Of a stretch of DNA of 23,471 nucleotides, positions 715 through 22,900 are shown one piece after another. Source of the DNA: Spirogloea muscicola (taxonomy: Eukaryota; Streptophyta; Zygnematophyceae; Spirogloeales; Spirogloeaceae). Position numbers and translations under genes: made by a program. The stretch lies in the NCBI GenBank assembly GCA_009602725.1, contig WELB01000223.1, forward strand, positions 133,558 through 157,028. The letters are read 5' to 3'. Every line of letters begins with the position of its first letter. The stretch's first letter is position 1. The notes under the pieces were generated by a model. It made no database searches, had not been told where the DNA came from, and was given only the letters and a program-made list of their open reading frames with translations.

Positions 715-3700
715 ATGGCGGCCATGGCGGCGGCGGCGGCTGCGGTGCTCTTGACTCTATCGGCCGCATTGGCGGACGGCGCCCGGGAGGCGGCTTCGCC
801 TGAGGGCGGCGCCTGCCTGCCGGGCTTCGCGCTGGGGCCGCGCTCCGGGGCATGCCTGCTGGCGGCGCCCGGCCCGGCGACCTTCGGCCAGGCCGAGGCG
901 GAGTGCCAGGTCTCTCCATTCCCTGCCGTCACTCCTTAACCGCTCGAGCTCTCGCCTCGCCGTCGTCGCCACCGTTGGTGCCACCATTGACGCCCTGCCT
1001 CGTCTGCAAGCACAGCGTCGTGGCGGCCGGCTGGCGACGCTCCTGGGGCGCTTGGCGCTCGAGGACGCGGCGGAGCTGTGCCGAGCGTTACCCGGCGGCA
1101 CTGGCGACGGTGGGAGCAGCGGGTGCCTCGTGGGCGCCACGCGTGGGCTACAGCCAGGTGCGCAGCTCACACGATACCAGTACGCTATTACCATTGGCCC
1201 GTGTTGCAGAGTCGCCCGATCCGATTTCTGCTACTTACGTCAACACGCGCGCCTCTGTGGCTTTCGCTCCGGCAGGCCCGCCATGGAGGTGGACGGAGCC
1301 CTGCGCCTCCTTCTCCACGGACCTGTGGCTGGCCACTACGACGCCGTCGGCAGCCTCTCCTTTGATGACCGGTGAGCTCCACTGCACCCAACTTGGCGCC
1401 CACTCGCTCCCGCGCTGTGGCTTGCGCCGCAGAGGAACGATCCCTTTGCTGAAGACTGTGGTGGGTGGCATGCAGTGCGGCCACTGCGATGGTGGCGGCA
1501 AGACGAGCTGCAGCAGGCAGCCGCAGCAGCAGCAAAGGCAGTGGGCCGCTGTGCTCATGTGGTGCCAGAGGCCGGTAGGGCCCACGCCGGCCTGGTCCCA
1601 GTGGCGTGCGCCTCGACAGCGCCATTCATTTGCTCGCAGTCGGCTTGCAGCGTCACGCTGTCATCGGCCGTCAGTGCCACCTCTCAGGGCCTTTTTAAGT
1701 GCTGCTTGGCGTCGGCCACGCCCACGGCGCTGGTAGTGACGGCGAGCGGCGGCACTTGAGAGTGGAGTCGAAGACGTCAAAGACTAAAAAGAAGACAAAG
1801 AAAACTAAGAAGTCGAAGGAAAAGCCGAGCGGCACGAAGCACGATGGAAGACCGCGGCACAGCTGCAATCACCACCCTGGCCACCACCACGTCCGCTGCC
1901 TGGTGAGGGGTGCCCGCTCTGCTTGCTGCAGCCACGGGAGCGTTGTGGGAACTTGAGCTTTGTCTGTAGAGTCTGGGCCTGCACACAATAGGGCCTGCTG
2001 CAGGAATGAATATGCAGAAGATTGCCGACACTGATACTCCATACTGTGGTGCCGCTGCAGCCGCCGCAGATGCCACCGCCAACAGGGAGGGCGCCGGCAA
2101 AGATGCCGCAGTCGCCTCCAACATCAAGCAGGCCTCTTTCACCCAAGCGGCTGTCCATGCCACCACCTCCTCGCCGCTCGCCTCCTCCAAAGCTACAATT
2201 GCCTCCATTGCTCAAGCTACAACCGCCTCCGCCCAAGACGCACAGGTCCCCACCGAGTGCGGCGGCGGCGCCGCCCTCATCGAAGAAGCCTTCCCGTTTT
2301 CGGCCAGTGAGGGCCTCCACACCTCCTCCAACAAAGGCCATCCCACCTCCTCCCTCTGTCAGTAAGCAGGCCCAGGCGGGCGTGTCGCTACTGGCCTTCA
2401 AGGCCGCTGTCCGAGATCCCCACGGCTACCTCACCAACTGGATCGGTACCACACCGTGCGCCTCACATTGGAATGGAGTCTTCTGTGAGGACCAGGCTGT
2501 GGCCGCTGCTAGCCTCCCACCAGCCGAGGCCTCAGCATTTGGGGCCAGACTGGCAGTCAGGGCTGTGGCGGCGCAGACTCAGGTGGTCGTCGCTGGCCTG
2601 GACCTCAACGGCTTTGGCCTTCATGGCTACGTTCTGCAGTTCCTGCGCAACCTCCCGGTGAGCACCGGGAGCTCTCCTCTCAGCATGCATATTCACAACT
2701 CTGCTGCAGCGTGGATGAGCAGTGCCTCGCAGAGACTTTGCAGCCTGGCAATGTCGAGCTTGTTGGTGTGACCTGGCGGCTTGCATGACCTCAATCTCCA
2801 CCAGAAAGACCGGAGGATAAGGAAAGAGCAGAAAGGGCAGAAGGTCCAGAAATTGAAGATGGCTGGAGGGGAGAGAGATGGGGGCATGCAACTGAAGGAC
2901 ATTGTCGGCTGTGTCAATCTCTGAACATGTCGATGTGGCTCTAATAGCTCCTCTGGTTCACCATTGTGCGCAGGACCTGGGCTTCATCCATGCAAGCCAG
3001 AACTTCTTCGTCGGCGCACTGCCAGATCTAAGCGGACTGAGTCTGCTCGCTGAAATTGACTTCTCGCTTAACCTCCTCAACCATCGCTGTTCAGCACGCG
3101 GCTGGACGTGCTCGCCGTGAACAACAATGCCCTCAAGGAGCCGATCCCAACCAATCTGGGGTCCCTCCCGGTCTCGTTCGCCGTTCTCGCCCACAACGCG
3201 CTCCGCGGGCTAATCCCCGCCAGCATCGGGCAGCTCGCGCCGACGTTGTCGGAGCTTGTGCTGCTCGACAACGGCCTCATTGGTGGCCTCCCCGTAACCA
3301 TCACCCAGCTCCGCTCCACGCTTGTACTCAACTTCGCTGACAACCGCCTCAACGGTGGCCTCCCCCTCAACATTGGCAATCTCACAAGCCTCGTCCAGGT
3401 GACTGGCCAACTTGTTGTCCTCGTTGCTGTTATTCTGCCCTGAACAGCTCTGACGGCTCGCAGCATGGCCTCCAGCTGGACATTGCGGGCAACCGCTTCG
3501 CAGGCAACATCACCACCTCGGGGGTGTTCTTCTTACCTAATCTGCAGGTACATCTCCCACTTATGTGCCCTTCTGCCAAGAAAGCCAAATTTGCAGGTTG
3601 ACCAACACTATCTCTCCTTGGACCTAGCAACATGAGGCGAGCTGCTTGGGGCTAGTCATCACTGTACGTTCCTCGGCTGGTGTGCCAAAGAGCATGCCCA

Positions 3701-5700
3701 GTGCGGCTGCTGCTTCTTGCCTTGGTGCTTCTTCCTCGTTTCACGTGCTGCGCTCAAGGAAATTGCTCGGCTCTTGCAGCTATTCAACTATAAAGACAAC
3801 TCTTTTGTGGGCAAGCCGCCACCCAATACAACAATTGACGTTGTCATTGGCGAGGATTGCAGCAGCGGTCACTGCCAGGCATTTGGCCCACCACCTCCTG
3901 GTAATTGGTATCTAGTCTAGGCCTCTCTACTGCTTTCACAGTAGGCTGATTCTATGTGTAGGTGGTTGAGAGCTGCTCAAGTGTTGCTTCGAATATTAAC
4001 GGGGTTTTTAGGCTGTCAGCGCTGTCAGATCTTGTTAGAACAATCTGTGCCAAGTCTTCAGCAATGTGGCAATTCACTAGGGGCCACCAGTTGACATCGC
4101 AGATGCTGTCTTTTGCTGCCACAGTGGGTGCAGTTCTGCAACCTCCAAACCCAGTTGCGCTGCTATCCCCACCTCCACCTCCATCGCTCTCTCCACAGGT
4201 GCCATCATTATTACCCTCGCCAACAACATCATCCCCACCGTTGCCGGCCCCGTCCAGTCCGCCGCCACTGCCATCGCTCCCAGCCCTACCTCCACCACCA
4301 TTGCCTCTCAGTGGAGCATCTCCGGCCTCTCCACCTTCGCCTCCAATAGACCCATCTCTACTGTCTCCGCCGCCGCTGCCACCTTCGCCGGGGCTCAGCC
4401 CGCGTTTGCTGCCGCCATTGGCACCGCCACCGCCACCGCCATTGCCTGAGCTCCTGCCGACGCCACGTCCGCCGCCATTCCCCCCACTATCCCCGCCACC
4501 ACTGACCTTGCTGTCGCCCTCAGTGGTACCCTTCCCACCGTCTCTAAAGGCACCAAAAGTGCCGCCTCCGGAGTTGCTTTCTCCGCCCCGTTTGCCGCCG
4601 CCCCAGTCTTCCCTGCTGCCGCCATCAATTTCACCGCCGCTTCTGGCCCCTCTGTCATCGTCTCCTTCCCAAGCGCCTCCCCTGCCACCGCCACCAGCAT
4701 CGTTTACGCCACCACTCCCGCACCCGCTACCCCAACTGTTGCCTCCGCCGCCGTCGCCCCCAGTGGTGCTTCCTCCTCCAACGCCTCCCCCACCATCACC
4801 GCCACAATCGCCGCAACCACAACAGCCTCCCCCGCAGCCACCATTGCCACCACCATTCTTGGTGCCACGCCCTCCGTCGCCACCGCCACCTTCCCCTCCA
4901 TTGTCGCCGCCACCACCACCACCACCGCCGCCACCACCACCACCTCCTGGTAATTTTCATCCAGTCTAGACCTCTCTATGGCTTCCACAGTATGACACAT
5001 TGGTGGTCAAGAGCTGCTAGAGTGTTATTTCGGATAATTTAAGGGGTTTGCGATAAGCCTGTCAGCGCTCTTAGATGTTGTTATTCTCAAACTGTGCCAA
5101 ATCTTCAGTAGAGTGGCTGACCAATAGAGCAACCTGTTGACATCTCACATGCTGTCCTGTGCTGCCACAGTGGGTGCACTTTTGCAACCGCCACCCCCAG
5201 TTCCATTGCTATCCCCACCCCCATCTCTCCTGCCGCCGCCACCGTCGCCGTCGCCGTCGCTCAGCCCGCCTTTTCTGCCGCCATTGGCGCCACCACCTCC
5301 GCCGCCTGAGCTCCCACCGCCGCCACCTCCGTCATTCTCGCCACCATCCCCGCCCCCGCTGGCCCAATCCTCGCCTCCGCTGCCGTTGCCCCCAGTGGCA
5401 CTTCCTCCGCCAATGCCTCCTCCACCATTACCGCCACCACCACAGCCTCCTCCGCCGCCATCACTGCCACCACCATTTTTGGTGCCACCCCCTCCACCGT
5501 CATCACCGCCGCCTTCATCGCCGTTGCCGCCGCCACCGCCACCACCGCCAACGCCGCCATCTCCGCCACCGTCCCCGCCGCCGCCGTCACCGCCGCCGCC
5601 GTGGCCGCCGCCACCCTCACCACCGCCGCCTCCGCCGCCACCGTCACCGCCACCGCCGTCGCCGCCGCCGCCGCCGCAGGAGCACATCTGGCCCGCATGA
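715..5700 (+). CDS. Secreted C-type lectin-like / Pro-rich / LRR / extensin-like protein, multi-exon
   Basis: Proposed exons: 715-909, 1016-1157, 1276-1371, 1455-1902, 2061-2657, 2974-3398, 3464-3547, 3780-3900, 4125-4949, 5171-5700 (TGA at 5698-5700). All introns are GT-AG and phases match, apart from two frameshifts. Domain order: signal peptide ([10 protein letters not shown]), C-type lectin-like domain, Lys-rich then Pro-rich linker, LRR N-cap ([19 protein letters not shown]), plant-type LRRs (for example [12 protein letters not shown]), a Cys-containing end (GEDCSSGHC), then two SPPPP-rich exons. LRR-extensins are wall-bound regulators of growth; C-type lectin-like domains bind glycans or proteins. 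A surface or wall role is my inference. One frameshift falls at about 1690-1740 and another at about 3060-3108, so this is either a decaying gene or one with assembly errors. The acceptor of exon 4 is uncertain. A two-gene reading (lectin, then LRX) is possible, but the LRR half has no signal peptide of its own and joins the lectin half in phase 0. Confidence 0.65.
766..1659 (+). other. C-type lectin-like domain (exons 1-4)
   Basis: The hallmarks appear in order across four exons. They are an opening CLPGF with a second Cys (GACLLAA), the helix FGQAEAECQ, the GGRLATL strand crossing the 909/1016 junction, SSGCLVGAT in place of the usual W-I-G core, [10 protein letters not shown] resembling the W-x-W-x-D-G loop, FSTDLWLA, and the final Cys pair in RCAHVV and [13 protein letters not shown]. 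The length of about 200 residues with an Ala-rich insertion is long for this fold. The canonical calcium motifs (EPN or QPD, and WND) are not obvious, so calcium-dependent sugar binding is not supported. The same exons occur in the inverted paralogue. Confidence 0.7.
1770..2366 (+). other. Lys-rich then Pro-rich linker between lectin and LRR parts
   Basis: After the lectin domain comes a basic run ([15 protein letters not shown]), a Cys/His-rich piece ([14 protein letters not shown]) ending at the donor GTGAGG after 1902, then exon 5 from 2061 with PPP-rich sequence ([17 protein letters not shown]). The junction is phase 0 on both sides. An Ala/Thr-rich frame through the same Pro-rich DNA is also open; this follows from the CCN composition and is probably not used, because only the Pro frame runs on into the LRR cap. 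Confidence 0.55.
2370..3900 (+). other. LRR N-cap and plant-type leucine-rich repeats
   Basis: Exon 5 ends with an LRRNT_2-like cap ([16 protein letters not shown], then [12 protein letters not shown]) and a first repeat ([15 protein letters not shown]). Exon 6 (2974-3398) holds about six repeats with the plant consensus LxxLxLxxNxLxGxIPxxL. Exon 7 (3464-3547) adds [12 protein letters not shown] and exon 8 (3780-3900) a final degenerate repeat plus GEDCSSGHC. The frame slips inside exon 6: FSLNLL is read in one frame and [14 protein letters not shown] in another, with the slip between about 3060 and 3108. The exon is 425 nt where neighbouring phases require a multiple of three, consistent with a one- or two-base indel. 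Confidence 0.7.
3890..5700 (+). repeat. Tandem duplication of an intron plus an extensin-like exon
   Basis: Two units share the same layout. Each starts at a CCACCTCCTG exon end followed by the donor GTAATT and an intron of about 220 bases with similar text (CTAGACCTCTCTA or CTAGGCCTCTCTA near its start, GCTGCCACAG at its end), then an exon beginning TGGGTGCA with VGAVLQPP or VGALLQPP. Unit 1 exon is 4125-4949; unit 2 exon is 5171-5700. Both exons are Pro/Ser-rich with SPPPP blocks typical of extensins, which are hydroxylated, O-glycosylated and cross-linked in walls. Both splice in phase 1, so the copying kept the reading frame. Only unit 2 ends in a stop codon. Confidence 0.75.
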
Positions 5701-5887: not shown

Positions 5888-6301
5888 GTGTTCGGCCTAA
5901 GCATTAGCCCGTCTCCGCTGCCGACAACCACCATGGGTGCCAGCTGCCACAACAATGCCGCCACTGGCACACCATTATCCTGCCGTAACTGCCGTAGTTA
6001 CTGTGAAGCTGCCAGTCACGTGAACCCCTGGCCGAGCAGGCCTGGCGCCTCCGAGCTCACCCCGCGCGAGCGANCGCCGCCGCCGCCCTCGCCGCCGCCA
6101 CCCTCGCCACCTCCGCCACCGCCGCCACCGTCACCGCCACCGCCACCGCCGTCGCCTCCGCCGCCACCTCCACTCGGGTACTATGACGTCGGCGGGGGCG
6201 GGGAATATGGGGGCGGCTGGAACTATGGGGGCGGCGGTGGCGATGGCGGCGGCGGCGCCGATGGTGGCGGCGATGGTGGCGGCGGCAGCGGCAGTTATTA
6301 G
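5888..6301 (+). CDS. Pro-rich then Gly-rich wall-type reading frame, hypothetical
   Basis: The frame ends at TAG 6299-6301. After a Cys-containing start of no known family comes PPPPSPPPP-type sequence from about 6075, then an abrupt change to a Gly-rich tail with Tyr (GYYDVGGGGEYGGGWNYGG). The composition matches structural wall proteins (extensin plus glycine-rich protein). One undetermined base lies at 6074, exactly where the Pro-rich part begins, so the upstream join is unsafe. It could be a further exon related to the extensin exons at 4125-5700, or the tail of another transcript. The true start is not visible. Confidence 0.35.
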   Translation: MFGLSISPSPLPTTTMGASCHNNAATGTPLSCRNCRSYCEAASHVNPWPSRPGASELTPRERXPPPPSPPPPSPPPPPPPPSPPPPPPSPPPPPPLGYYDVGGGGEYGGGWNYGGGGGDGGGGADGGGDGGGGSGSY

Positions 6302-6854: not shown

Positions 6855-8512
6855 CGATCTTGCGAGAAAGCGCGGAACGTAGATGCGCAGGCCGAAGCCG
6901 TTGAGGTCCAGGCCAGTGACGACCAGCTGCGTCTGCTGCAGCTCTGGCCGCCAGTGTGGCCCCAAATGCTGACTCCTCCACTGGAACACCTGTGGCGGCC
7001 ACCGTCTGATCCTCACAGAAGACGCCAGTCCAGCTGGAGGCGCATGGTGTATCACCAACCCAGTTGGCAAGATAGCCGCGGAGGTCGCGCACGGCGGCCT
7101 TGAGGCCAGTATCGAGCCCCCTGCCTGGGCCTCCTTGCTGATAGATGGAGGGGGTGGGGAGGCCTTCTTCAGGGGAGGAGGAAAGGTCCATCTTGGTGGA
7201 GGGGGGGGGGGGGCCTCATCGGCGGCGGTGATGGCCGTTGCCCCCTCGGCGGGGGGCTGCGTGTCTTGGGTAGCGGAGGTGAGCGTGCTTTCTGAGGCGA
7301 GCGTGGCTTGGGCGGAGGCGACCGGCGGGGAGGTGAGGGCTGCGACTGTCGCTTGGGTGGCGGTGACCTCCTTGGCGGTGGCAGCATCCGCGACGTAGGT
7401 GACGGCGGCCTCCTGGGTGGCGGTGGCGGCCGCAGCGGCTGGGAGTAGCACGCCAAGCGGCAAGCCACATCAGCGCCTGCCACCTTTTCCAATTTCAGTC
7501 ACCGCAGCTGGCCACATTGGCCAACCGGAGGCTCGTGACTTCATGGCATGGAGTTGGCAGCAAGGTGAGGGGCCCTCACGGGACAACGGACGCGGTGACG
7601 ACCGGGGTGGTGGTTGCAGCTGTGCTGCGGGCTTCCGTCGTGCTTTGAGCTGCTCGACTTCTTCTTCTTCTTCGACTTCTTCTTCTTCTTCTTCTTGGAC
7701 TCCGCCATTTGCCGCTGCTTGCTCGCACCGCTGGCCCTGGGGGCGTGGCCACCAGCGGGCAGCGCCACAGCAAGCCCCTGAGAAGTGGCAACAAGCGACG
7801 CCGGCACTGCAGCGCTGCAGGCTGTCTGCGAGCAGATGAAAGGTGCCGCCCCGGCACACGCCGCTGGAGGTAGGCCAAGGCGGCCCACGCCGGCGGCTGG
7901 CACCACGCGAGCGCAAGTGCTTGCTGCTGCCGCCATGGAGGCGGCTGCCAGCCGCAGCTCATCCTGCCACCACCACCTCCGCGACACCACTGTGTGTCAG
8001 CCACCACCAATCTTGCCTTAGCGGTAGCAGCGGCGGCTGCGTCAAACACCCTCACAGAATTACATTACCGTATGCCGTCGCCCACAGTTGTTATCGGTGC
8101 CGTTGCATCACAGAATTCATGCTGCAAACTGTGCAGCTTCTTACCATTTTTACTACTTCGGCCCTGGGCAGCAGCACTCTGTGGAGGCCAGCCACAGAGT
8201 GGCCAGCTCGTGGACGGTGGGGCACAGATCGGGACAGAAAGAGCTCACCGGCTGCTGCGAAGGCGGGCGACGCCTGCGGCGCAGCCAGCCACAGGTCCGC
8301 CGAGAAGTCGGCGCAGTGCTCGGCCCACAACCATGGCGGCCCTGTGGCTCAAGCAGGAGCCATTGTGGGTCTTCAGCGATACAAGCTTGGAAAACAGTGC
8401 GAGCTCTGCGGGCTGCCGCCACACCATGGAGGTGCGCAGAGCTGCGCACCTGGAGCTGAAGCTCGAGTGGCGCCCAGGAGGCAACCACCGGCGCCGCCAC
8501 CGTCTGGGACAA
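6855..8512 (-). pseudogene. Inverted, truncated paralogue of the lectin-LRR gene
   Basis: On the minus strand the exons of the 715-5700 gene recur in order. They are the end of exon 2 (GGCLLGAT, donor GTGCGC after 8450), exon 3 (8341-8249, WLWAEHCADFSADLWLA), exon 4 (about 8014-7580, WWWQDELR then GAAPFICSQTACS and a Lys run), and exon 5 (from 7438, PPPP-rich then the LRR cap ANWVGDTPCASSWTGVFCED and LDLNGFGL). Splice sites and phases match, including the phase-0 junction 7580/7438. Similarity stops near 8512 before exon 1 and near 6855 within the first LRR, so signal peptide, most LRRs and extensin exons are absent. At least two frame changes lie in the LRR cap and one at the start of exon 4. 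This is therefore a non-coding relic, lying tail to tail with the parent-like gene. Confidence 0.7.
7658..7696. repeat. CTT microsatellite coding a Lys run in the relic
   Basis: Thirteen triplets, nearly all CTT with one CGA, read as a lysine block with one serine on the minus strand in the paralogue. The parent-like gene has mixed AAG, ACT and TCG codons at the same place, so the pure triplet run probably expanded in this copy. Confidence 0.8.
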
Positions 8513-8594: not shown

Positions 8595-9180
8595 GAGCAG
8601 AGCACAAGCACAAGCACGAGCACAGCGACTGCTAGCCAGAGGCAGAGGCAGAGGCTCAGAGCCAGAGGCAGCAGCGAGGGCTCTGCCGCTAAAGAGCTGA
8701 AGTACGCAGACCATCCGCGGGATGACGACTTCTTCCCGTTGGCCATTGATACCCATGGGGCGCTGGGCGCTCGGTGGCTCGAGCTGCTTACCCAGCTCGC
8801 CCGCCACACCATCGCCCGTCGCTTCCATGGGGAGCCGGTAGACTTTCCTGAAGCCGGGTCGCTGGCGCAAGTATATCGTATGCGCCTGGCCGTCTCGCTG
8901 CAGAGGTCTATGGCCCGGGCGCTGCACCTTCGTGCCGGCAGAGCCCTCGCTGCTGCCTCTGGCTCTGGCCAGGGGACCCACTTCCACGAGCCTAGCATCT
9001 CCGACCTGCGGCTGCTTAGCAGAGGTTACTGAGTGATTCGTAGCTGCTTTGTTTCTCAGTGTGCTTGTTTTTCTTAGCGCTTCCTCTGGCCCCCTTCTCG
9101 TACTCTGTTCATTCTTTTTTGGGCTGGCTTTTCCAGCCCCTATTCTCAACGGGCGAGCACTTTCCTTCTTCTGTGAAAGA
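8595..9180 (+). mobile_element. LINE-like retrotransposon 3' end, copy A (5'-truncated)
   Basis: The open frame ends at TGA 9030-9032 and holds the C-terminal tail of a non-LTR retrotransposon protein: KYADHPRDDDFFPLAID, then GARWLELLTQLAR, SLAQVYRMRLAVSLQRS and ISDLRLLSRGY. The pattern K-Y, P-x-A-I-D-T-x-G, L-L-x-x-L-A and R-L-x-V-x-L-Q-R matches the region after the zinc finger in algal LINE-type proteins, and copy G carries the matching preceding segment. The first part (about 8595-8690) is Ser/Thr/Arg low complexity. The 3' UTR after the stop has TTCTTAGCGCTTCC and the hairpin GGGCTGG/CCAGCCC at 9121-9139. No reverse transcriptase domain is present, as expected for a 5'-truncated insertion. 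Confidence 0.6.
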
Positions 9181-9245
9181 AGAAATTGCTCGCCCATGGA
9201 AAGAGAGGGGCTAGCAAAGCCAGCCCAGAAAATAATGTTCAATAC
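9106..9245. repeat. Head-to-head inverted pair of the retroelement 3' hairpin module
   Basis: The plus-oriented module (TGTTCATTC, hairpin 9121-9139, then GGGCGAGCA at 9151-9159) is followed at once by a minus-oriented one (TGCTCGCCC at 9187-9195, then GCTAGCAAAGCCAGCCC and ATGTTCAAT). The two halves together can fold back on themselves. This is probably two insertions joined at their 3' ends. Confidence 0.6.
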
Positions 9246-9842
9246 CCAAAGGCCACAATATGGTGCCGAAAAGGAGAACTACACAAGTGGACACGAAATG
9301 ATGCAGATGAAAGCTCGATATCCACGGGTGAGAAAAGCCAGCCCGGGAAAAATTGATACGGTTCGAAGGGGCCAATTACGGAGGGGTCTAAAGCGCAATG
9401 AAATGCACTGGCCGTGAGTTGCCCCAAAAAGGGACGAGCGAAGTTAGAACGTGGATGCCAGTAGGCGCAGTGGGAGCAGTGGGCCGCCACAGACGGCGGC
9501 GGCCATTGATCTGCGGCGGAAGGGTGGCAAGCGGGCGGAGCTGCCGTCTCGCGCGTCCGCCCGGGGGCCGCCAGGCTGGGCCGCCGTCCGAGCGTAGGGG
9601 CCGGCGCGCCACGGACGGGTCGGGCCAAGCTCGGCTTGATGACACGCGGTGGGGCCTGCCCCGCCGGTGCGCCGGCCCGCTCCCCGCCATTGCGCCGCCC
9701 CCCGCGCACCCGGAGCCCAGTCGTACAAGCGCTCGGAGGCGCCACTCACGGCGCTCCGCGAACTCGCAAGCTCAGTGCCGCGTCCACCCCCAATCATTGG
9801 TGACGCTGCGCCCGCTCCGGGAGTGAAATGAATGTAGCGCTC
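9246..9842. other. No gene recognised; GC-rich stretch between two LINE copies
   Basis: Long frames are open on both strands because of high GC, but none shows a known motif and no pair of splice sites stands out. A fragment at about 9325-9365 (AAGCCAGCCCGGGAA, then GGTTCGAAGG) resembles a minus-oriented 3' module. The rest may be older insertion debris. Confidence 0.4.
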
Positions 9843-10330
9843 TAGGTGGCTCGAGCTGCTCACCCAGCTCGCCCGCCACACCATCGCCCGTCGCTTCCAT
9901 GGGGAGCCGGTAGATTTTCCTGCAGTTGGGTCGCTGGCGCAAGTGTATCGTATGCGCCTGGCCGTCTCGCTGCAGAGGTCTATGGCCCGGGCGCTGCACC
10001 TTCGCGCCGGCAGAGCCCTCGCTGCTGCCTCTGGCACTGGCCAAGGGACCCACTTCCTCGTCGTTCGCACTCAGGCTCCCTCCGACTTTGTCCATTCATT
10101 TGGGCTGGCCTTTCCCAGCCACCAGTCAATCTGGCCGCGCTTTCTCATGAGCCTAGCATCTCCGACCTGCGGCTGCTTAGCAGAGGTTACTGAGAGATTC
10201 GTAGCTGCTTTGTTTACCAGTGTGCTTGTTTTTCTTAGCGCTTCCCCTGGCCCCCTTCTCGTACTCTGTTCATTCTTTTTTTGGGCTGGCATTTCCAGCC
10301 CCTATTCTCAATGGGCGAGCACTTTCTTCT
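9843..10330 (+). mobile_element. LINE-like retrotransposon 3' end, copy B
   Basis: The sequence starts abruptly within the tail domain (GGTGGCTCGAGCTGCT, nearly identical to copy A) and reads SLAQVYRMRLAVSLQRS as in copy A. The tail is interrupted by a segment of about 90 bases at 10057-10148 that breaks the frame, after which LRLLSRGY and TGA (10191-10193) follow. The same 3' UTR comes next, with the hairpin at 10283-10301. The different 5' boundary from copies A and C is what aborted target-primed reverse transcription produces. Confidence 0.65.
10057..10148 (+). repeat. Inserted segment inside copy B, shared with 12598-12690
   Basis: Relative to copy A, about 90 extra bases lie between CACTTC and GAGCCTAGC. 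They contain GTTCGCACT, GGGCTGGCCTTTCCCAGCC and TCTGGCCGCGCTT. A closely similar stretch occurs at about 12598-12690 next to copy D. Its first half resembles the family 3' UTR (as on the minus strand at 10580-10668) and its middle is the family hairpin. It lacks GT-AG ends, so it is not an ordinary intron. Confidence 0.6.
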
Positions 10331-10364
10331 CCCGAAGGGGGCAAGGGCTGTGATAAGCAAGCAA

Positions 10365-10668
10365 TGGCTGTGATAAGCCAGCCCGAAAAGAGTTGACAAG
10401 GTTCGGAGCGAAGGTAAGAGACGTTTCCAGGAGAGGGCAGTGGCTACGAGACAGAAGTGCTCGCCCATAGAGAGAAGAGCTCGCCCATAGAGGGGCTGGC
10501 AAAGCCAACCCAAAAAGAATGGACAAATAAAGCCAAAGAAAGAAGTGCCGAAGAAGGACTACACTACAAAGCACGAGACGGTGCAGACAAGGTCTGAAAG
10601 AGCCGGAGTGCGAAGGACTAGGACTAAGACATCAGCCAGGGAACGCTCAGTAACCTCTAGTTAGGAGA
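10365..10668 (-). mobile_element. LINE-like 3' UTR copy on the minus strand
   Basis: Read on the minus strand it starts AGAGGTTACTGA (the R-G-Y-stop of the family), followed by CGTTCCCTGGCTGATG and the same 3' UTR text found at 12555-12640, then TTGTCCATTC and a hairpin with its stem at 10492-10511. The module GCTCGCCCATAG occurs twice (near 10460 and 10480), so the end is duplicated. A further weak module lies at 10370-10395. Confidence 0.6.
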
Positions 10669-10679
10669 TGCAAGTCTGA

Positions 10680-10895
10680 GTTTGTTTCTCTGTGTGCTTG
10701 TTTTTCTTAGCGCTTCCCCTGGCCCCCTTCCCGTGGGCGAGCCTTCTTCTTCCCGTGCTTGCCTTTGTACTTGGCCACACATGGCCTCCCCATCTCTTAA
10801 TATACACGCATTTTCTTCCCGTACTCTGTTCATTCTTTTTTTTGGGCTGGCTTTTCCAGCCCCTATTCTCAATGGGCGAGCACTTTCTTCTAGTC
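10680..10895 (+). mobile_element. LINE-like 3' UTR fragment
   Basis: It begins TTTGTTTCTCTGTGTGCTTG and TTCTTAGCGCTTCC as after copies A, B and C, without the preceding protein tail. About 100 bases of unrelated sequence follow, then the hairpin module at 10844-10862 and GGGCGAGCACTTTC. Confidence 0.6.
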
Positions 10896-10994
10896 TGAGT
10901 AGCTAGCCGGCGGAAAGACGTCAGAAGCCCTTGCACGAGCGGCACGCTCCGAACGGCCCGCGGAACCCCCACCCGCCGGAGCCCCGGCTACATT

Positions 10995-11045
10995 AGAAGA
11001 AAGTGCTCGCCCGTTGAGAATTGGGGCTGGAAATATTCGGGTATG
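10995..11045 (-). repeat. Minus-oriented fragment of the 3' module
   Basis: On the minus strand it reads TTTCCAGCCCC, ATTCTCAACGGGCGAGCACT and a TTCTTCT tail. It is the distal half of the hairpin module only, cut within the stem. Confidence 0.5.
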
Positions 11046-11139
11046 CGGGCCCCCTGGCGCCGCCGCCAATGCCAGAAAAGGCGCGCGGCGGCAAGAAGGA
11101 AGGTGCGCAGGGCACATGAAATTGAAAGGGAGGCCGATT

Positions 11140-11520
11140 TTGGGCCTTCGGCGCGGCCCTGGCGATCGACGTTCACGCGGTTTTCGGCAGCCGCTGGCTG
11201 GATCTTCTCCAGCGGCTTGCCCGTCAGGCCATTGATCGGCGGCCGGGTCCTTTACTTATGGGGAGCCGGTTGGCTTCCCTGCAGCCGGGTCGCTGGCGCA
11301 AGTGTATCGAATGCGCCTGGCCGTCTCGCTGCAGAGGTCCATGGCCCGGGCGCTGCACCTTCGTGCCGGCAGAGCCCTCGCTGCTGCCTCTGGCGCTGGC
11401 CAGGGGACCCACTTCCAGGAGCCCAGCATCTCTGATCTGCGGCTGCTTAGCAGGGGTTACTGAGTGTCTCGTAGCAGCTTTGTTTCTGTTACTTAGCGCT
11501 TCCCCTGGCCCCCTTCTCGT
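11140..11520 (+). mobile_element. LINE-like retrotransposon 3' end, copy C
   Basis: This copy reads ALAIDVHAVFGSRWLDLL and LARQAIDRRPG, a diverged version of the copy A tail, then in a shifted frame the SLAQVYRMRLAVSLQRS block, ending LRLLSRGY and TGA at 11461-11463. It continues into the shared 3' UTR and is cut by the assembly gap. The divergence from A and B in its first third suggests an older copy or a recombinant. Confidence 0.6.
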
Positions 11521-12331
11521 NNNNNNNNNNNNNNNNNNNNNNNNNNNNNNNNNNNNNNNNNNNNNNNNNNNNNNNNNNNNNNNNNNNNNNNNNNNNNNNN
11601 NNNNNNNNNNNNNNNNNNNNNNNNNNNNNNNNNNNNNNNNNNNNNNNNNNNNNNNNNNNNNNNNNNNNNNNNNNNNNNNNNNNNNNNNNNNNNNNNNNNN
11701 NNNNNNNNNNNNNNNNNNNNNNNNNNNNNNNNNNNNNNNNNNNNNNNNNNNNNNNNNNNNNNNNNNNNNNNNNNNNNNNNNNNNNNNNNNNNNNNNNNNN
11801 NNNNNNNNNNNNNNNNNNNNNNNNNNNNNNNNNNNNNNNNNNNNNNNNNNNNNNNNNNNNNNNNNNNNNNNNNNNNNNNNNNNNNNNNNNNNNNNNNNNN
11901 NNNNNNNNNNNNNNNNNNNNNNNNNNNNNNNNNNNNNNNNNNNNNNNNNNNNNNNNNNNNNNNNNNNNNNNNNNNNNNNNNNNNNNNNNNNNNNNNNNNN
12001 NNNNNNNNNNNNNNNNNNNNNNNNNNNNNNNNNNNNNNNNNNNNNNNNNNNNNNNNNNNNNNNNNNNNNNNNNNNNNNNNNNNNNNNNNNNNNNNNNNNN
12101 NNNNNNNNNNNNNNNNNNNNNNNNNNNNNNNNNNNNNNNNNNNNNNNNNNNNNNNNNNNNNNNNNNNNNNNNNNNNNNNNNNNNNNNNNNNNNNNNNNNN
12201 NNNNNNNNNNNNNNNNNNNNNNNNNNNNNNNNNNNNNNNNNNNNNNNNNNNNNNNNNNNNNNNNNNNNNNNNNNNNNNNNNNNNNNNNNNNNNNNNNNNN
12301 NNNNNNNNNNNNNNNNNNNNNNNNNNNNNNN
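11521..12331. other. Assembly gap (811 N)
   Basis: No sequence is available. The gap sits inside the cluster of near-identical retroelement ends, a usual cause of assembly breaks. Long open frames crossing it are artefacts. Confidence 0.99.
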
Positions 12332-12391
12332 GGCGCTCCAGCTCCCCAAGTTAGCTTGTCAGATTTGTTTGTGCTCACCCGTGGGTACTAA
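12332..12391 (+). mobile_element. LINE-like tail fragment after the gap, copy E
   Basis: The last twenty codons of a diverged family tail are visible: VSLSDLFVLTRGY then TAA at 12389-12391, comparable to ISDLRLLSRGY in copy A. The rest of the copy lies in the gap. Confidence 0.5.
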
Positions 12392-12524
12392 TGTCATCTT
12401 AGGTACCTTAGATTAGGTCTCCGTATTATGTAGCATTGTTTAGTCTGCACTCGACTCTGCCTGAACAATGTATTGGCTTGAATTGGCCTCCCTTTCAATT
12501 CATGCGCCCCGCGCGCCTTCTCTC

Positions 12525-13020
12525 TCTATTCTCAATCGGCGAGCACTTTCATCCTCTAGGGGTTACTGAGCGTTCCCTGGCTGATGTCTTAGTCCTAGTC
12601 GTTCGCACTCCGGCTCCTTCAGACATTGTCCACTCCTTTGGGCTGGCCTTTCCCAGCCACCAGTCACTCTGGCCGCGCTTCTCCTCTAGGGGCGTTGCCT
12701 GGCTACAACGCCGCCGGTTCGTTAGCCCAGGTCTTCCGCATACGCCTGGCGGTATCGTCCCAACGATCCCTTGCTCACGCCGTCTACACGCGAGCAGGAC
12801 GTGCTCTGGCCGCTGCCTCTGGTTCTCGGCGGAGTGCTTCCTTCCTTGCAACGAGCTACTCCTACCTGATGTTGCTCACTCGAGGGCACTGAGCTTCCCT
12901 CGTGCGTTGTCGTGTTTGGTAGTGTAGACCTCTTTCGGCTCCTCTTTCTTTGGCTTTGAACATTGTCCATTCTTTTTGGGCTGGCTTTGCCAGCTCTCTT
13001 CTCTATGGGCGAAGCCTTCT
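12525..13020 (+). mobile_element. LINE-like composite: 3' UTR piece plus tail copy D with its 3' UTR
   Basis: First comes a UTR piece (GGCGAGCACTTTC, then GGTTACTGAGCGTTCCCTGG) with the same insert as in copy B (12598-12690). It leads into a diverged tail: AAGSLAQVFRIRLAVSSQRS, then RAGRALAAASGS and LLTRGH with TGA at 12890-12892. The 3' UTR follows, with TTGTCCATTC, a hairpin at 12978-12996 and ATGGGCGA. This is either a nested insertion or one chimeric element. Confidence 0.55.
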
Positions 13021-15164: not shown

Positions 15165-16379
15165 GAGACAGAAAGAACCCGTGAGGACAACCTTCGGTGC
15201 CTGCATAAGGGTCTGCAGACGACGATGTTGGCAGTGATGCTTGGGTGGCTCTAGGGGTTATCATGATGGACCAGAGCTCACTCTAGCGGCACAGTGACAT
15301 GGAGAGGGCTGGGCATGTGCATCCTTGTTTTCTGCTTGTATCAATCATCACGTCACCGGCTCCCTATACAGCCATGCATCAAGCTTTTCATGGGGAGCCA
15401 AGAAGGCCTACCCGAGGAGACCATGCGCATGGACATAGATTGCTGATCCACTATGACGAGACTTGAACAAGTTTGATGGGGGCGCCCTGCACGCACTGTC
15501 AGATGTCACAATCACTCAAAGTGCTTCTCCATTAGTACAGAAATTCGAACCAGTTGGTGTTGTGGTCACTGAATCGACACCCGACCATCCTACCACGGGG
15601 AGGCAGGCTGCCACTCCAAGCTTACTTGTGGAGCTGAGCGCTCTTTCAAGTCAAGCAAGAGGCTACTTGTGTGCTATTTTCTGAAACCTGTCAAAACACT
15701 GCATTCAGGGGACAGTGGCTCATAGTTGCAAACCATAATTAGGAGATGGGGAGATTGCGAAGTGGTCGAGCGACAGGCTTCTTGCTGCGACCTCTTGAGA
15801 AGTATGCACTCCTTCCTGCGAATAGCGGCTAGTAAGGAAAGGCCATATGTGTCAATGTGTAGTAGTGAACTTCTGATTCTCGAAGAAACTTACAGCTTAA
15901 CTGTGACGCAATTTCTCTGCCATGCACAATCTCATGGCGTGCATCAAGCGATACTGGAAACGACCAGCTGATGTCCCAAGTACAATGCTGATGACCCAGT
16001 AAATGACCTAAACTACAACACTACAGCACTCTACGTAACACTGTTGTCCTTGACGACCATCAATGGCAGCCAGGTCATTCATAATGAATGTACAAGTTTG
16101 TGGCTTTTCAGGTTGTTCATAGTCATCAAGTAATCACAACCCTCGTTTACAGCCACTGTTCCCACCAAGATAGTTGATTGGACAAAGAAGTATGAGCTGG
16201 CTATTGTGTTTCTAAGGACAACGCGACCTTGCAAGAGCATGATCAACAACCCTCCGGCAAAATTCCCGGGGATAGATGAGAGGTTTCTCTGCAAGGCACT
16301 GCCACAACATCATGCCATCCATGCCATCCATGCCAAGATAGACAACAACTAAAGATCAGTATAGTAGTCATAACCATGG
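15165..16379. other. No gene recognised; 3' flank of the DDL gene
   Basis: No exon on either strand could be supported. A 9-base tandem repeat (CATGCCATC, about 2.7 copies) lies at 16311-16334, roughly 50 bases past the DDL stop codon on the minus strand, so it is probably in its 3' UTR. No AATAAA polyadenylation signal was found close to it. Confidence 0.45.
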
Positions 16380-19300
16380 TTACCCATCTGCAATTTCGAA
16401 AGGGTTGATCGTATACTGGTCAAGCAATGCCTCCTACTTGTGCTGCACAAGTAACACCATGCTGACCTGCTGATAGAGGACGGTGGAGGGAGTCATGCCT
16501 GGTACTGTATTGGCTTCTATGACAAGGATCTGTCAAGCAGCACATGACCTGCTTCAGACATCTATTAACGTAACCTTTGGCAACCATCAATCATCACCGT
16601 GGGCCTCATGAAATAGAATCTGGACAAACAGCAGCCTTGACATGCAAAGGAGTATGTAGCATGCAATCTCAACGGTGCTGCAGCAACTTCTGTCATCTAG
16701 TAGAAGTAGCTCACAGTCACAGCCAAGTTGGACAATTCCTGCTGCACAAAGCTCAGTCGCTTATCATGTGGATAGTGATGCTGCTGGCTTACTTCACCAG
16801 TGTCAACGTGGAGGAAAGCATCCACCCGAGCAAAACCATCAAGCCCAAGGGTGTTGGCAACAAGTTCCATCCGTCTCTTTGCCCTTGCGACAACCTCTTC
16901 ACTGCATTTAGACCGGTCATACAGGTGTTACACTCTCATTGTCAAGCTGTGACGAGCTCATAGGTAACAGACTCGTTAAGTAGAATACAATCAAGTCAAT
17001 TCAAGCAAGCAGCGAGCTATGGTTGATACACTATGTCACCTATTGAAGTCTCTCGGTCTCTGTTGTGCATACCTGATGATGGAAGGTGGAGGTGGTGTGA
17101 GATTGACACCAGTGCCACCTGCCAATGACATCCTTCCATTCAAATTTAAGTCTGGTAGCAACCTTCAGTTGGACTCTGCTATCCTGCTACCATGCTGTCC
17201 AATATTTTTATAAGGACTTCATTCGGATATGCCGACCGCAAGCTAACAGCTGCTTCGGCATCATGCAGCGCGAGCAGTCTACTCGATCAGCTCAACCATC
17301 TCGAGCTTCTTATACCTTGGAACTTCTCCTCCAATGAGAGCACATCACCGCTCTCCTTCACGGTGATGCTGGGATTCAGGGCAACCATTTGGCCCTGCTT
17401 CCCGAGCACCGCTTGCGTAATCTCTATCCATCTAATTTTCCCCTTCCAGACAAGCTTCCCTTCAACATTGAAGCTGATCGGGTCTGTTTCAATGAAGGGC
17501 TCAAATAGCACTGATGAAGGAGCTGGTACGGGCATCTCAATTATTCCATTGAGCTGCACGGTGCGCAGTGACCTCATTAGCTCTGTCCCCTTCCAGTAAC
17601 TAGCAGAAGTATCTATTCAGTGCACCGCATGACTGCAATACTGTAACTAAAACATATTCAACTGTTATTCAACTGCTACTTGGTGAAGTGCATGAAGGAC
17701 AACGTCAAGAAAAGCCCTCCAGAGTGCAGTACTGTATAAGCATCCAGGTGCTGAAGTCGCTAGCTGCTTACATTCGTGAGTGAGCCAGGTAAGAGCCTAG
17801 GAGCTTCAGTGAACAGTGCCTCCACGTACGTGCCTAAATCTCGTGAACAACTGGCATTTCCAACAACAGAAATTTTGTCATCTGATCATTTGATATCTAT
17901 CACTGCAAAGACATACAATGCTAGCATTAGGTCTTCACCTATTTTCACCAGGACCTTCCATTAACCCTGAAGCAAATTGCTCATTGTCTGACTTTCTCCT
18001 TCAATTGGCAAGAAAGTGACCCACACCAATAGGATAACAGAGACAACAACAATCAACTGCCCCAAGGGTTGCAGCATGCACCTCAATCTTGCAACACCGG
18101 TTGAGCAGCCATCAGACACTGGCTTCACACACAGAGATTCAGCTCCAAGCCTTGAAGTCAAGGAGCGCCAGGTACGGTCGTTGGAGCTGTCAGCTGCCTT
18201 GCCTTTGGCTCCTCCTTGCGGCGTAAGCAGAGCGGCCAAAGTTTCCACAATTTTACTTGCTGTATGCACACCATTGCCTTCAAGCTGCGAATGAAAATAC
18301 CAGAAGGGGACAGTTAGTGGTTCGCTTGACTCAGTACCCAGTTACAATATCAGCTTACTCAAGAGAATACAAGGGCACAGAACAACACTGAGCAAATGAG
18401 AAGTAACTAACCCCTTTAAGAGCGTTGGCTGTGTCAGCCTTGTCCATACAGAGGCGAGAAGCTTTAGAGCTTGAACCTGCGAACGTGATGTGCAGCCACA
18501 CAACCACTGTAATCACGTAGTGACACCTTTGTCCTTGCTCATTGCCTAGCTCTTCCAGATTGCATTGGACTGGTGTTCTCAAACATGCTCTTATGTACTT
18601 TGTCACTGGATATTAACATGCAATGACTCATGCTCATTGTAAGCATAGAAGACGAGTACCTGTGTAGGCAACTCTGGAGCCTTCAAATAGGCTCTGCAAC
18701 GTGCCATCCTCTCCAATTCCTCCGTGCACTGCATAATTGCACACGAAGAAGGTCACTCAAGGTAACTATTGGGCTCGTATCCTGAGAGATTATGATTCTA
18801 TTGCGGATCTTGCAAGCTATGGCATTTCGAGCTTCAGCAACGTGGATTACTAGAAGGTGCAGGCTTACCAGCCAGAAAAATAACAGCCCCATTTTTCTTA
18901 GCAAGCTCAAGAATGTTCGCCAATTGTAAACGTTGAGGCATCTGCTTTTCCAGAGTACCAAGTTGCTGCTGTGCACCCGTGCTGCTTTGACTGGCTTCTG
19001 TCAAGCTCCTTACCACCTCCTCTCGGACTTGAGACATTATAGCAGCTGTTGAAGGTTCTGTTGACATCTCACAAGCATCAACAACTTCTTCCACTGTATG
19101 TCGAAGCACAGAATAATACCTGTCAGGCAGATACACATTACAATTTCATTCCAAGGCAAGAATGCAGCGAAGGGAGAGCCAGTGACTAGAGAGGGACATA
19201 GAGCCCCATATGAGCAGGGTTTGGCAGATGAATTGATCCTGGAAACTATGCAGGCTGATGGTGAGAACCACTGGCTAAGGTACAAGGATCTGCTTTCCTT

Positions 19301-19930
19301 CGCTTACTTAGCACATAGGAAGTTAAAAACCAGAGTCTGCGAAAGCACATGGAGAGCCAAGAAGATAGGACCTAACAAACTTGTATTCAGCCAGGATACA
19401 TGTAAGTTGGTACATGGCAGTTGCAACAACTTACGGCAGAGCCCATACTATCCTCTCCAAGGGACTTGCCAAACGATGATGACCATCATCACCATCTTCT
19501 TCACATAAATTGAGGTATGATGGTGATAGTAGGAAAGGACTGACTTCCAACTGCCAAAGGACCATGACACCTTGTCACTAAGTAATCTGCGAGGAGTATT
19601 AGAAGAAGCAGCTAGCTGGAAAAATTGCTGCCCTTAGGTCTCGAAGTAGAATGTATCAAATCTCCTGTAAATGACAAACATATGTCACATAGAAGCAATG
19701 TTGTCTTTCTATAAATCTGACTGCTTACAGCAGGCGTCACAACGAAATGACAACAACGTAAAAAGCATGTAGCTGAAGCTTGTCAAGAATCTAGAGCACC
19801 CAAAGTGATAAAAGAAGGTGAGGAAGCATGACATACATCATCCCAGGTTTTCAACTTAAGCCATACATTTGTACCACTCATAAGGGAAACCTGTCGTTCT
19901 GATGTGTCGCCCCCAAAGAGCACATACACG
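16380..19930 (-). other. DDL module 2 (C-terminal ATP-grasp unit)
   Basis: Motifs in order: YVLFGGDTSERQVSLMSG (about residue 475), VHGGIGEDGTLQ (about 627), VAYTGSSSKASRLCMDK, CVKPVSDGCSTGVARL (about 720), VLFEPFIETD, LNPSITVKESGDVLSLEEKF, GFARVDAFLHV, and ILVIEANTVPGMTPSTVL (about 897-914). The E-x-N-T-x-P-G-M-T signature and the GEDG and S-T-G-V loops are present, so this half is the likely active site. Exon 14 (19550-19435) codes a variable acidic loop (EEDGDDGHH) that connects two conserved parts. Confidence 0.8.
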
Positions 19931-22900
19931 GGTTGCTTGATGGGAGTCTTTGAAGTGCTTGGTACGGAATGCTGGCATGATATTTTGGCTTGTCCACAAC
20001 TTGGTAATTGTACTCCAATCCGGGAGCATGCTCTTGCTAGGATGAACCTGAGGATATCTGCATGGGAAAAGCCAACCTGCACAAGTCATCCCTTGACCCT
20101 GTCAGCGCAGGGTTGGAATGAATCATGAGATGCCTTGATGACAGTATCTGAGAAAGTCTGGTATAGACCTGCGCAGCTTGTTGGAAAAGGAAGCTTGTCT
20201 GCTCCATCCCGCTTATCTGATGGCAGCAGGCAACATGATGAGCAGTTGCTGAAGTTGCTCTACTCCGGTCCTCTTCACCATGCAGTCTGAGCTTGAAAAG
20301 AGCATGTGCAAGCTACTTAAGTGACCCATAACAACCTTACAATATTGATATCTGAGAAAACGATGGTCCCAGCTTGGCTGCTTCCCACGTACTCCATGTC
20401 ATCTCCTTTGGCAGGAAGAAGCCACCCGTCAATCCTGGCAAAGTCCCTTAAAGAAAATGCTGCAAAGAGCTTAGCAGCACCTTCCCTTACGCCAGCTAGT
20501 GCTTCCAGAGGAAACCTGGGGGGTGTATAGTAGGACACCTGCAGTTGAAGATGATACAACTGCTTACACAATTGTTGCCCAGAACAGAAATTTCTGAAGC
20601 AGAGTACAAGAAAAGTCCTGAGCCGTTTCTGGAGGTGGCTCTTACCTGCTGAGTAGGAAGATATTTACGACGATAGTCAAATATTGCAGTAGTACCCTCC
20701 TCTGCTGCGCCCTTCAGCTCAACCTGGTACGTACAAGCATATTTTCACTTACACAAAGTTCAATGATATGTAAAGAGCTCGCAAGCAGGTCAGCAGCATA
20801 AGCTTCCCAAGCTATCCCGCTCATGTCATTTCTTAGATGGCACATCTAGCCTACTTGTGTACCTCAATGGCCAACTAAGGTTAGAGTTTTTCTCGTGGTC
20901 TCTACAAATACGTCAGCAGACGAGCTCTAACATCTCAAGTGTCATTCTGGATGAGCACGAATGAAAACAAACCTCGGTAGGGAGGAGGGTGACTGGTTGG
21001 CAGCGGTCACCGAGCCCTGCGTCAAGGACAATGGCGGTGAACTCCTTCCCACCCTCAGCAAAGGCTTCCACCACAACCCTATGATCGATACCCTGAGTCA
21101 GAGACAAGGAAGAAGTAATAGCAATATCTTAGGATATTAGTGTATGAAAGCGCCAATGAAAATTTCCGGATGGGCTAAATTAGTGAACCTGCTAATGTAT
21201 AGTTGGAGTGCTAGAAATTCTGAGAGTCAGCAGGTGCCGAGTTTTATAACTTTGCAGACCAACATTACCAGGACATCTATGACTCTCTTGGCGTCATTGG
21301 CGCTATGAGAAGTGGACACAAAGCGAAGCTTCCGTGGAAGAGCTCACTTCTTATTTTGAAAACGAACTACTCTCACAGTGCCAAGCTTCAGCATCACGTC
21401 CAATACTGACCTCCTCAATCAAGGACTTGGCACTTGCAATAGTCTCCTGAATTCCAATGGCCACACTCACTCCCAAGCTTGACCCAGCCCGTGCAGGCTT
21501 CACCTATCATGTCATTGGAAGACAAATGTTTCGAAGACGTCAGTCAACCTGACTGCGTGCGGAAGTGAATGTATACAAAGACTTGGGGGTTTTCTCAGGC
21601 GTAAGCCAGAACTCTAACAATCAAGAGAGTTCAGCCACATACCACCACCCGCCCATGTTTCGGGGACAAATTTTGTTCAGCAAACCAGGTCGCCAATGCA
21701 TCCTCGTCTGCTTCATTGTCCTGCCCAGATGTAAAGCGGTGATTTCGCTATCTCATGACATTGACCAGGTCTTCGGAGTACATTCACATCCTCATTGCTG
21801 ATTGAGCAGAGCTATCGTGCCATACATTGCCATGCACAACTCCACTCAATCTAGCTACCAGGGCTGGTAATATGAAAGAATGACATTTGTAAGAAAACAA
21901 CCTCACACAGAGGCCTTGTAGCACATTATAGCACAACTTAAAAAGGTGCCACACCTGAAAGAGAAAGCTTGGAAGGGTCGCAAAACCCAGCTTTGCTAGC
22001 TCAATGGCTGCTGAATGCTAAAAGACATACATATGGTGCAATGCCATTGTCAGGACTTGTCCAAACTGACGTCAGCTATCAATTTGAGTTGCTGATTCAC
22101 ACATCCATGTTGGCGACCGAGCCTTGGCTGAGAGGTACCTTGTCAAACGCCAGAGCTGCTTTGGTAGCGGAGGTGCCAACGAAGGGTATGCCAGCACTTT
22201 CCAGAAGCTCCTGTGTGAGGAATATGCCTTGCATAAGAGCTGCTGCACAGAAAGGAGCAGGATGAAGCTATTCCTTCACTGCTGTGATGTCAATGCTACA
22301 TGAAAGGAGGAGCAATCATTGATGTCTGCATACCTGGATGCCTCCATCTTCTCCAAATTTTCCGTGCAAAGCCGGGAAGACAATATCGACACTCTGCTTA
22401 AGGTGAGCCAAGAATGCAGCATGAGACTCGAATTTGTTGGCTGTGCTGCACAGAGGACAAGCTGATACTTGTCACTTGCAGCTGCCTCAAGTGCATCTTC
22501 TCAATTGTGGAACCGGTATGGGAGTCAAGCACCCACAATTGCTGGACAATTTGTTATTGCACTCTTCAAGCAGTTCCAGACGCATGCACCAGTAAGCAAT
22601 AGGGTATAAATTCGAATACTGGCAAATGATGTCAATTGAGCAGGTCCAAAAAGAACACCTTGCAAGCTTGAAGTCGAAATCAGAGGGCGTGTTGGAGTAC
22701 ATTTGAGCGTGGGAAATGGCATACACCTGCAAGCTCCGGTCAACAAAGTAGGTGTCTATCTCCACACCCGGACCCTGCATTGCGGGCATCCGACCTACCG
22801 ACAATTAGCACATGGACTGTAGGGCCCTCAATCCACAAGACAGTAAGTACGGGCTCTGGGCATTATTGTGCATCGAAGGCCAGCACAAAGAGCAGCGGGC

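What the first reader, a model, noticed from the sequence alone, without database searches (positions are those of the whole stretch)
715..5700. C-type lectin-like domain fused to an LRR-extensin: an unusual wall or surface protein
The sequence shows a signal peptide, a lectin-like fold, a Lys/Pro linker, an LRR cap and repeats, and extensin exons in one ordered series with matching splice phases. Plant LRR-extensins are known without a lectin part, and C-type lectin-like domains are rare in plants. The lectin and LRR halves join by a phase-0 intron at the same place in both the gene and its inverted relic, arguing that the fusion existed before the duplication. A glycan-sensing wall protein is my inference.
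Basis: partly seen in the sequence, partly recalled or inferred. Interest (0 to 1): 0.75.

Follow-up and report, generated by a model that had tools for sequence, protein, structure and literature searches.

The report
Lectin-headed LRR-extensin family; broken copy here
This photosynthetic organism's genome carries a family of large secreted proteins that join a lectin-like head to a plant-type leucine-rich-repeat/extensin body, and the copy in this window looks like a decayed member of that family rather than a working gene.

Summary
But the window copy does not read through: it lacks 1 base in exon 4 (stop at 1757-1759) and 85 bases in the LRR exon relative to its relatives, and ends at 5700 where copy B continues into more LRR modules. 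Exon 4 fits best from 1476, which makes the attractive 'EDCGGW' motif intronic.

The fusion itself holds. Of 13 copies in this genome, 5 are open from exon 2 to exon 6; splice sites of the CTLD-to-LRR join (1902/2061) are kept in 12 of 13; dN/dS is 0.25-0.50 for the CTLD part and 0.14-0.20 for the LRR part.

The LRR block is LRX-like. Lectin identity is likely but unproven: Lectin_C at best E 0.11, below cut-off; profile score above all of 200 shuffles. Canonical calcium/sugar motifs are missing, so 'glycan sensing' stays inference. The 'inverted relic' is a copy of another clade, not a local duplicate.

The parts
715..909 (+). Exon 1: signal-peptide-like start and first strands/helix of the lectin-like domain
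   Evidence: hydrophobic start in B, C, E
1016..1157 (+). Exon 2: lectin-like domain (GGRLA, CLVGATR)
1276..1371 (+). Exon 3: lectin-like domain ([11 protein letters not shown])
1476..1902 (+). Exon 4: end of lectin-like domain (C..C..PFIC) and Lys/His-rich linker; one base short near 1697-1699, stop 1757-1759
   Evidence: 427 bases against 428 or 431 in A-E
2061..2657 (+). Exon 5: Pro/Lys linker and LRRNT_2 cap
2974..3398 (+). Exon 6: LRRs, 85 bases missing after about 3076
   Evidence: 425 bases against 510 in B-E
3476..3547 (+). Exon 7: last LRR
3780..3900 (+). Exon 8: hinge ([20 protein letters not shown]) before the Pro-rich stretch
   Evidence: Start; end read (CCTG|GTAATT)
4125..4949 (+). 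Exon 9: Pro-rich (extensin-like) stretch
   Evidence: Boundaries read; frame; motif counts
5171..5700 (+). Second Pro-rich exon (repeat of the exon 8 end/intron/exon 9 start), ending in a stop
8249..8341 (-). Inverted copy R, exon 3
7580..7989 (-). Inverted copy R, exon 4 (open frame)
6860..7438 (-). Inverted copy R, exon 5 (Pro linker, LRRNT_2) with a frame shift; low end approximate

Best explanation
The window holds a pseudogenised member of a multicopy family of large secreted extracellular-matrix (wall) proteins: signal peptide, a C-type-lectin-like head without canonical calcium-site motifs, a Lys/His then Pro/Lys linker, an LRX-type LRR domain with hinge, a Pro-rich (presumably hydroxyproline-rich) rod and, in fuller copies such as B and H, further LRRNT/LRR modules, with no membrane helix seen in the frames tested. 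Shown: order of parts, five open copies, constraint on both halves, LRX-like LRRs, lesions in the window copy. Inferred: the rod anchors the protein in the wall; the LRX domain binds a protein or peptide partner, as plant LRX proteins do; the head binds a second wall ligand, probably not through the canonical calcium/sugar site; the whole works as a two-ended wall linker or sensor. The basic linker may bind acidic polysaccharide.
For: 13 loci are hit by both the lectin-like and the LRRNT query, in the same order. Open frames: B, C, E over exons 1-6, H and I over exons 2-6. Join splice sites kept in 12 of 13. dN/dS below 1 in both halves. LRX-type LRR, hinge exon in 11 of 12 copies scanned. Head: CTLD-weighted weak hits and profile comparison above 200 of 200 shuffles, twice. 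Lesions in W.
Against: No Lectin_C match above cut-off in any member scanned; hhalign probability for the CTLD match is only 15-22%; a reversed control gave an unrelated solved-structure hit at E 0.053. By summed score receptor-kinase LRRs rank above LRX2 (13th, 16th, 20th), and the N-terminal part alone does not single LRX out. No transcript data; one splice junction after the Pro-rich exon in B could not be placed. No Tyr-X-Tyr cross-link motif in the Pro-rich cores of 7 copies.
Confidence: 0.7

Rival explanations
1. Two neighbouring genes: a small secreted lectin-like protein (ending at 1757-1759 in the window copy) and a separate LRX gene starting after about 1930.
For: The window copy's own frame ends at 1757-1759; no transcript evidence is at hand.
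Against: Five copies are open across the join with conserved phase-0 splice sites; the Lys/His-rich part of exon 4 is itself constrained (dN/dS 0.25-0.67).
Confidence: 0.1
2. The head is not a C-type-lectin-like domain but another Cys-rich secreted domain whose pattern imitates one; the rest (LRX-extensin) stands.
For: All database matches of the head are below usual significance; the reversed control reached E 0.053 with an unrelated chain; EPN/QPD and WND are missing.
Against: Of the distinct solved sequences hit (6 in all) 5 are CTLDs and collinear; profile comparison beats 200 of 200 shuffles with and without codakine.
Confidence: 0.18
3. The window copy is a working gene and its lesions are assembly errors.
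For: The one-base difference lies next to a T/A run (TTTTTAA), a place prone to error.
Against: The 85-base loss is not a homopolymer error, and the 3' LRR modules are missing too. 8 of 13 copies are broken, so decay is usual in this family.
Confidence: 0.07

Closest known systems
Leucine-rich repeat extensins (LRX/PEX) of land plants
   Same: Secreted; LRRNT_2 cap, LRR block matching LRX2 in one stretch (query 73-307 to chain 72-306), Cys-containing hinge, then Pro-rich stretch.
   Different: Lectin-like head and Lys/His linker in front; further LRR modules after the Pro-rich stretch; no Tyr-X-Tyr motif in the cores counted.
C-type lectin-like domains (codakine, Reg proteins, LY75/PLA2R domains)
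   Same: Order C..(S/T)F.qAeaeCq..GGrLa..C.vGa..W.W..C..LW..C..C..P.IC, seen by eye; weak matches and profile score above shuffles.
   Different: Long loops, no EPN/QPD or WND; similarity below usual significance.
MST3 and SRCR/CTL proteins of Chlamydomonas
   Same: Algal secreted proteins joining C-type lectin domains to poly-Pro stretches (PMC11015965, PMC6704257, PMC8226300; passages seen).
   Different: MST3 has five CTL domains, Ig-like domains and a PKD2-like membrane part, and no LRX block is described in the passages seen; LRR is named there as a domain of other PKD2-like proteins, most with poly-Pro (figure legend).

Membership tests
Leucine-rich repeat extensin (LRX) | N-terminal signal peptide | tested here: met
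   Hydrophobic start in B, C, E by a simple hydropathy count; no dedicated predictor run
Leucine-rich repeat extensin (LRX) | LRX-type LRR domain | tested here: met
   LRX2 and pollen LRX1 are the only chains with a single stretch passing the threshold (3 of 34; 1 of 40; 1 of 35); summed scores rank receptor kinases higher; no tree built
Leucine-rich repeat extensin (LRX) | C-terminal extensin domain with Ser-Pro3-5 repeats | tested here: inconclusive
   Pro 51-73%, SPPP 4-21 per core in 7 copies, no Tyr-X-Tyr; in B, E and H the Pro-rich stretch is followed by more LRRs, so it is not C-terminal
C-type lectin-like domain (CTLD) | Match to the Lectin_C profile above cut-off | tested here: not met
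   Best E 0.11, 13.7 bits against 22.6; 1 of 8 members at E 0.14
C-type lectin-like domain (CTLD) | Profile similarity to known CTLDs | tested here: inconclusive
   hhalign score 25.5 and 24.3 against shuffle maxima 18.7 and 20.4 (200 each), probability only 22% and 15%
Calcium-dependent sugar-binding C-type lectin | EPN or QPD, and WND, motifs (definition recalled) | tested here: not met
   None in the 8 sequences given
Calcium-dependent sugar-binding C-type lectin | Binding of a sugar | not testable with these tools
   Needs protein

The most novel reading that the evidence does not exclude
One molecule would link a protein or peptide partner and a second wall ligand.
Probability: 0.4. Interest if true: 0.72.

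Novelty: new variant of a known kind. Interest (0 to 1): 0.5.

Why it matters
A survey of 16 plant genomes found LRX genes in none of its four algae (PMC4769139, passages seen), while a Penium secretome study reports an LRX1 homologue and LRR-bearing homologues in Volvox and Chlamydomonas (PMC6027541, passages seen). An LRX-type LRR plus Pro-rich rod with a lectin-like head, in a photosynthetic genome that may be algal, would bear on when LRX-type wall proteins arose and what they first bound. The mixture of open and broken copies makes it testable by expression and binding assays.

Tried and rejected
Exon 4 starting at CAG|AGGAACG: rejected, because the phases do not match and the residues in front of EDCGGW vary freely between copies; copies K and R carry a stop there that the later acceptor removes.

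Reading straight through intron 3: rejected; the frame that is open in the window meets TGA in A, B, C and G.

Pfam Lectin_C and pherophorin searches of the genome: no match, but no control genome rang either, so they say nothing.

NCBIfam scan of the head: one unrelated match at E 0.17.

Placing the organism more closely than 'photosynthetic eukaryote' (39 light-harvesting-family matches): not done, no reference set at hand. 'Algal' is my guess from the company of features.

Print status: searches with C-type lectin, leucine-rich repeat, extensin, LRX and alga terms (in one search only 15 of 24 papers were listed) showed me no paper describing this fusion. I saw listings, and passages of five papers; supplements were not open and most subscription journals are not held.

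Full report
Where it lies. The window is G000:C223:133558-157028 in an assembly of 153 Mb and 471 contigs. 39 light-harvesting-family matches at E 1e-10 or better show a photosynthetic eukaryote; its lineage was not determined.

The observation. LRRNT_2 matches at E 5.2e-9 and LRR_1 at 3.2e-6, both above cut-off. The lectin-like part, as a hand-joined composite, gave no Pfam match at E 1 or better.

The copies. Genome searches with the lectin-like part and with the LRRNT part share 13 loci: the window gene W, the inverted copy R (window 6.9-8.4 kb), and eleven others, A-K, which I fetched. Fragments on C22 (fetched as L012, not analysed), C17 and C193 were left out of every count. Below these, the LRRNT query finds more distant LRR genes, of which copy M is treated below. 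W and A-G align even in introns, and most of them in the 5' flank, so clade 1 is young.

Gene model. Alignment of both clades gives exons 715-909, 1016-1157, 1276-1371, 1476-1902, 2061-2657 and 2974-3398, with intron phases 0, 1, 1, 0, 0 in the open copies. The fourth exon starts later than a reader of one sequence would choose. B, C and E are open over exons 1-6. H and I are open over exons 2-6; exon 1 of H holds an N and that of I runs into an N stretch, and their starts were not seen. The other 8 of 13 are broken: W (1 and 85 bases missing), A (8 bases missing in exon 6), D (4 extra bases in exon 3), G (a base missing in exon 4 and the exon 4-5 junction deleted), F (most of exon 2 and exon 3 missing), J and K (shifted frames), R (no exon 1 found; frame shift in exon 5).

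The join. GT and AG of the intron between exon 4 and exon 5 are kept in 12 of 13 copies; G has lost the place. dN/dS (Nei-Gojobori) among A, B, C, E, H, I is 0.25-0.50 for the lectin-like part (15 pairs). For the LRR part it is 0.14-0.20 among B, C, E, H, I (10 pairs); for the 5 pairs with A only the LRRNT exon could be used (0.11-0.49), and on that exon alone the 15 pairs range 0.11-0.49. The linkers are looser: 0.25-0.67 (Lys/His) and 0.20-0.94 (Pro) (all). The values are pairwise and not independent. Both halves look coding and constrained.

Relic and gene. Over exons 2-5 W is 93.6% identical to G (698 columns) but 67.6% to R (1201 columns); R is 87.7% identical to K (1199 columns). R is a clade-2 copy.

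A third lineage. Copy M at C223:46.5-56.4 kb (L016) has two LRX-like modules in a row, a Pro-rich stretch of several hundred residues and an LRRNT/LRR module. Upstream lie a His-rich linker and an exon ending LWPAGCATPRPFLCS. Its match to the end of the lectin-like domain spans only 15-18 columns; its score, 26.35, is above all of 200 shuffles (maximum 24.66), with hhalign probability 27%. Pairwise BLAST gives E 0.011. A genome search with that exon found only itself and two places at E 0.3, and Pfam found nothing in it. Kinship of M's head therefore rests on position and this short match.

What the LRR block is. Against 177,635 distinct solved-structure sequences, receptor-kinase LRRs score highest by summing repeats; LRX2 is 13th, 16th and 20th. 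But LRX2 and the two pollen LRX1 sequences are the only 3 of 34 with one stretch that passes 1e-40 on its own, LRX2 the only one of 40 at 1e-34 for the C-terminal part, and LRX2 the only one of 35 at 1e-40 for M's first module. In the five chains printed, none of them LRX, the best single stretch has 86.6 bits, against 192.8 for LRX2's whole match. A short chain offers fewer registers, so part of this may be a length effect. The N-terminal part alone does not single LRX out. The hinge exon (..[20 protein letters not shown]..) stands before the Pro-rich stretch in 11 of 12 copies scanned; my pattern failed in J, and R was not scanned. Its likeness to the LRX hinge is recalled, not tested.

What the head is. 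Solved structures: codakine at E 0.36, the only hit of the 8-sequence profile; with copy H codakine 0.12, three Reg3-alpha sequences 0.81-0.85 and one unrelated chain 0.25; with copy E Reg4 0.063, the only hit. Lectin_C: 0.14 in 1 of 8 members, 0.11 in 1 of 4 trimmed members, over 20 residues. A hand-reversed profile gave one unrelated hit at 0.053, so such values can be chance. Against a profile of 11 CTLD fragments the family scored 25.5, while 200 column shuffles reached at most 18.7 and the reversed profile 14.3; without codakine 24.3, against 20.4 and 15.3. Probabilities are only 22% and 15%, and the fragments were gathered through codakine, which this family had itself picked. The matched stretch is the first third of the domain. 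The rest (C..C..PFIC) was aligned by eye. I take CTLD as likely, not shown.

Whole architecture. Copy B continues after the Pro-rich stretch into LRRNT/LRR modules and ends NTPPPGPA stop; H and a further 5'-truncated copy beside it end alike, E ends otherwise (APSPSPP). Maximum 19-residue hydropathy in the two long LRR frames of B is about 1.4-1.5, so no membrane helix is seen there; other exons were not scanned. One junction after the Pro-rich exon could not be placed.

Known context. [quoted passage not shown] more than 30 SRCR and/or CTL genes are reported in C. reinhardtii and a 16-gene orthogroup in E. debaryana (PMC8226300, passage); SRCR proteins of C. reinhardtii carry lectin and Hyp-rich domains (PMC6704257, passage). 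LRX was found in none of four algae in one survey (PMC4769139, passages), but an LRX1 homologue is reported in Penium (PMC6027541, passages). Lectin plus Hyp-rich is thus known in algae and LRX in plants; their union is what I did not find in print.

Mechanism. Inference throughout: the Pro-rich rod embeds the protein in the wall, the LRX block binds a protein partner as plant LRXs do (FERONIA binding LRX4 is cited in PMC6704257, passage), and the head contacts a second ligand. The missing calcium motifs argue against classical sugar binding by the head.

Noticed in passing
window 15480-22452: A stretch of about 7 kb is 83.8% identical to contig C345 downstream of copy E (7144 aligned columns), so gene W and its right flank are part of a segmental duplication.
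   Followed up: partly
window 19783-20085, minus strand: An exon matching the N-terminus of D-Ala-D-Ala ligase (E 3.4e-6, 28 bits, below the cut-off of 34.6).
   Followed up: partly
window about 8760-12900: The same short coding-like segment (..LELLTQLARHTIARRFHGEPV.. VSLQRSMARALHLRAGRALAAASG..) recurs several times among palindromic repeats, with an assembly gap at about 11521-12331; perhaps transposon remains.
   Followed up: no
window 6073-6301: A Pro-rich run passes into a Gly-rich one (..PPPLGYYDVGGGGEYGGGWNYGGG..) in an open frame just after the Pro-rich exons.
   Followed up: no
window 3880-4200 and 4920-5200: The end of exon 8, its intron and the start of the Pro-rich exon are repeated in tandem.
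   Followed up: no
contig C137, joined locus L008/L014, oriented about 10.0-14.6 kb: A further copy lacking the 5' part lies directly behind copy H and looks more like clade 1 than clade 2.
   Followed up: no
L016, just before the first lectin-like exons of copy M (about 1.2-1.4 kb): A long run of A follows an N stretch; possibly an assembly artefact.
   Followed up: no
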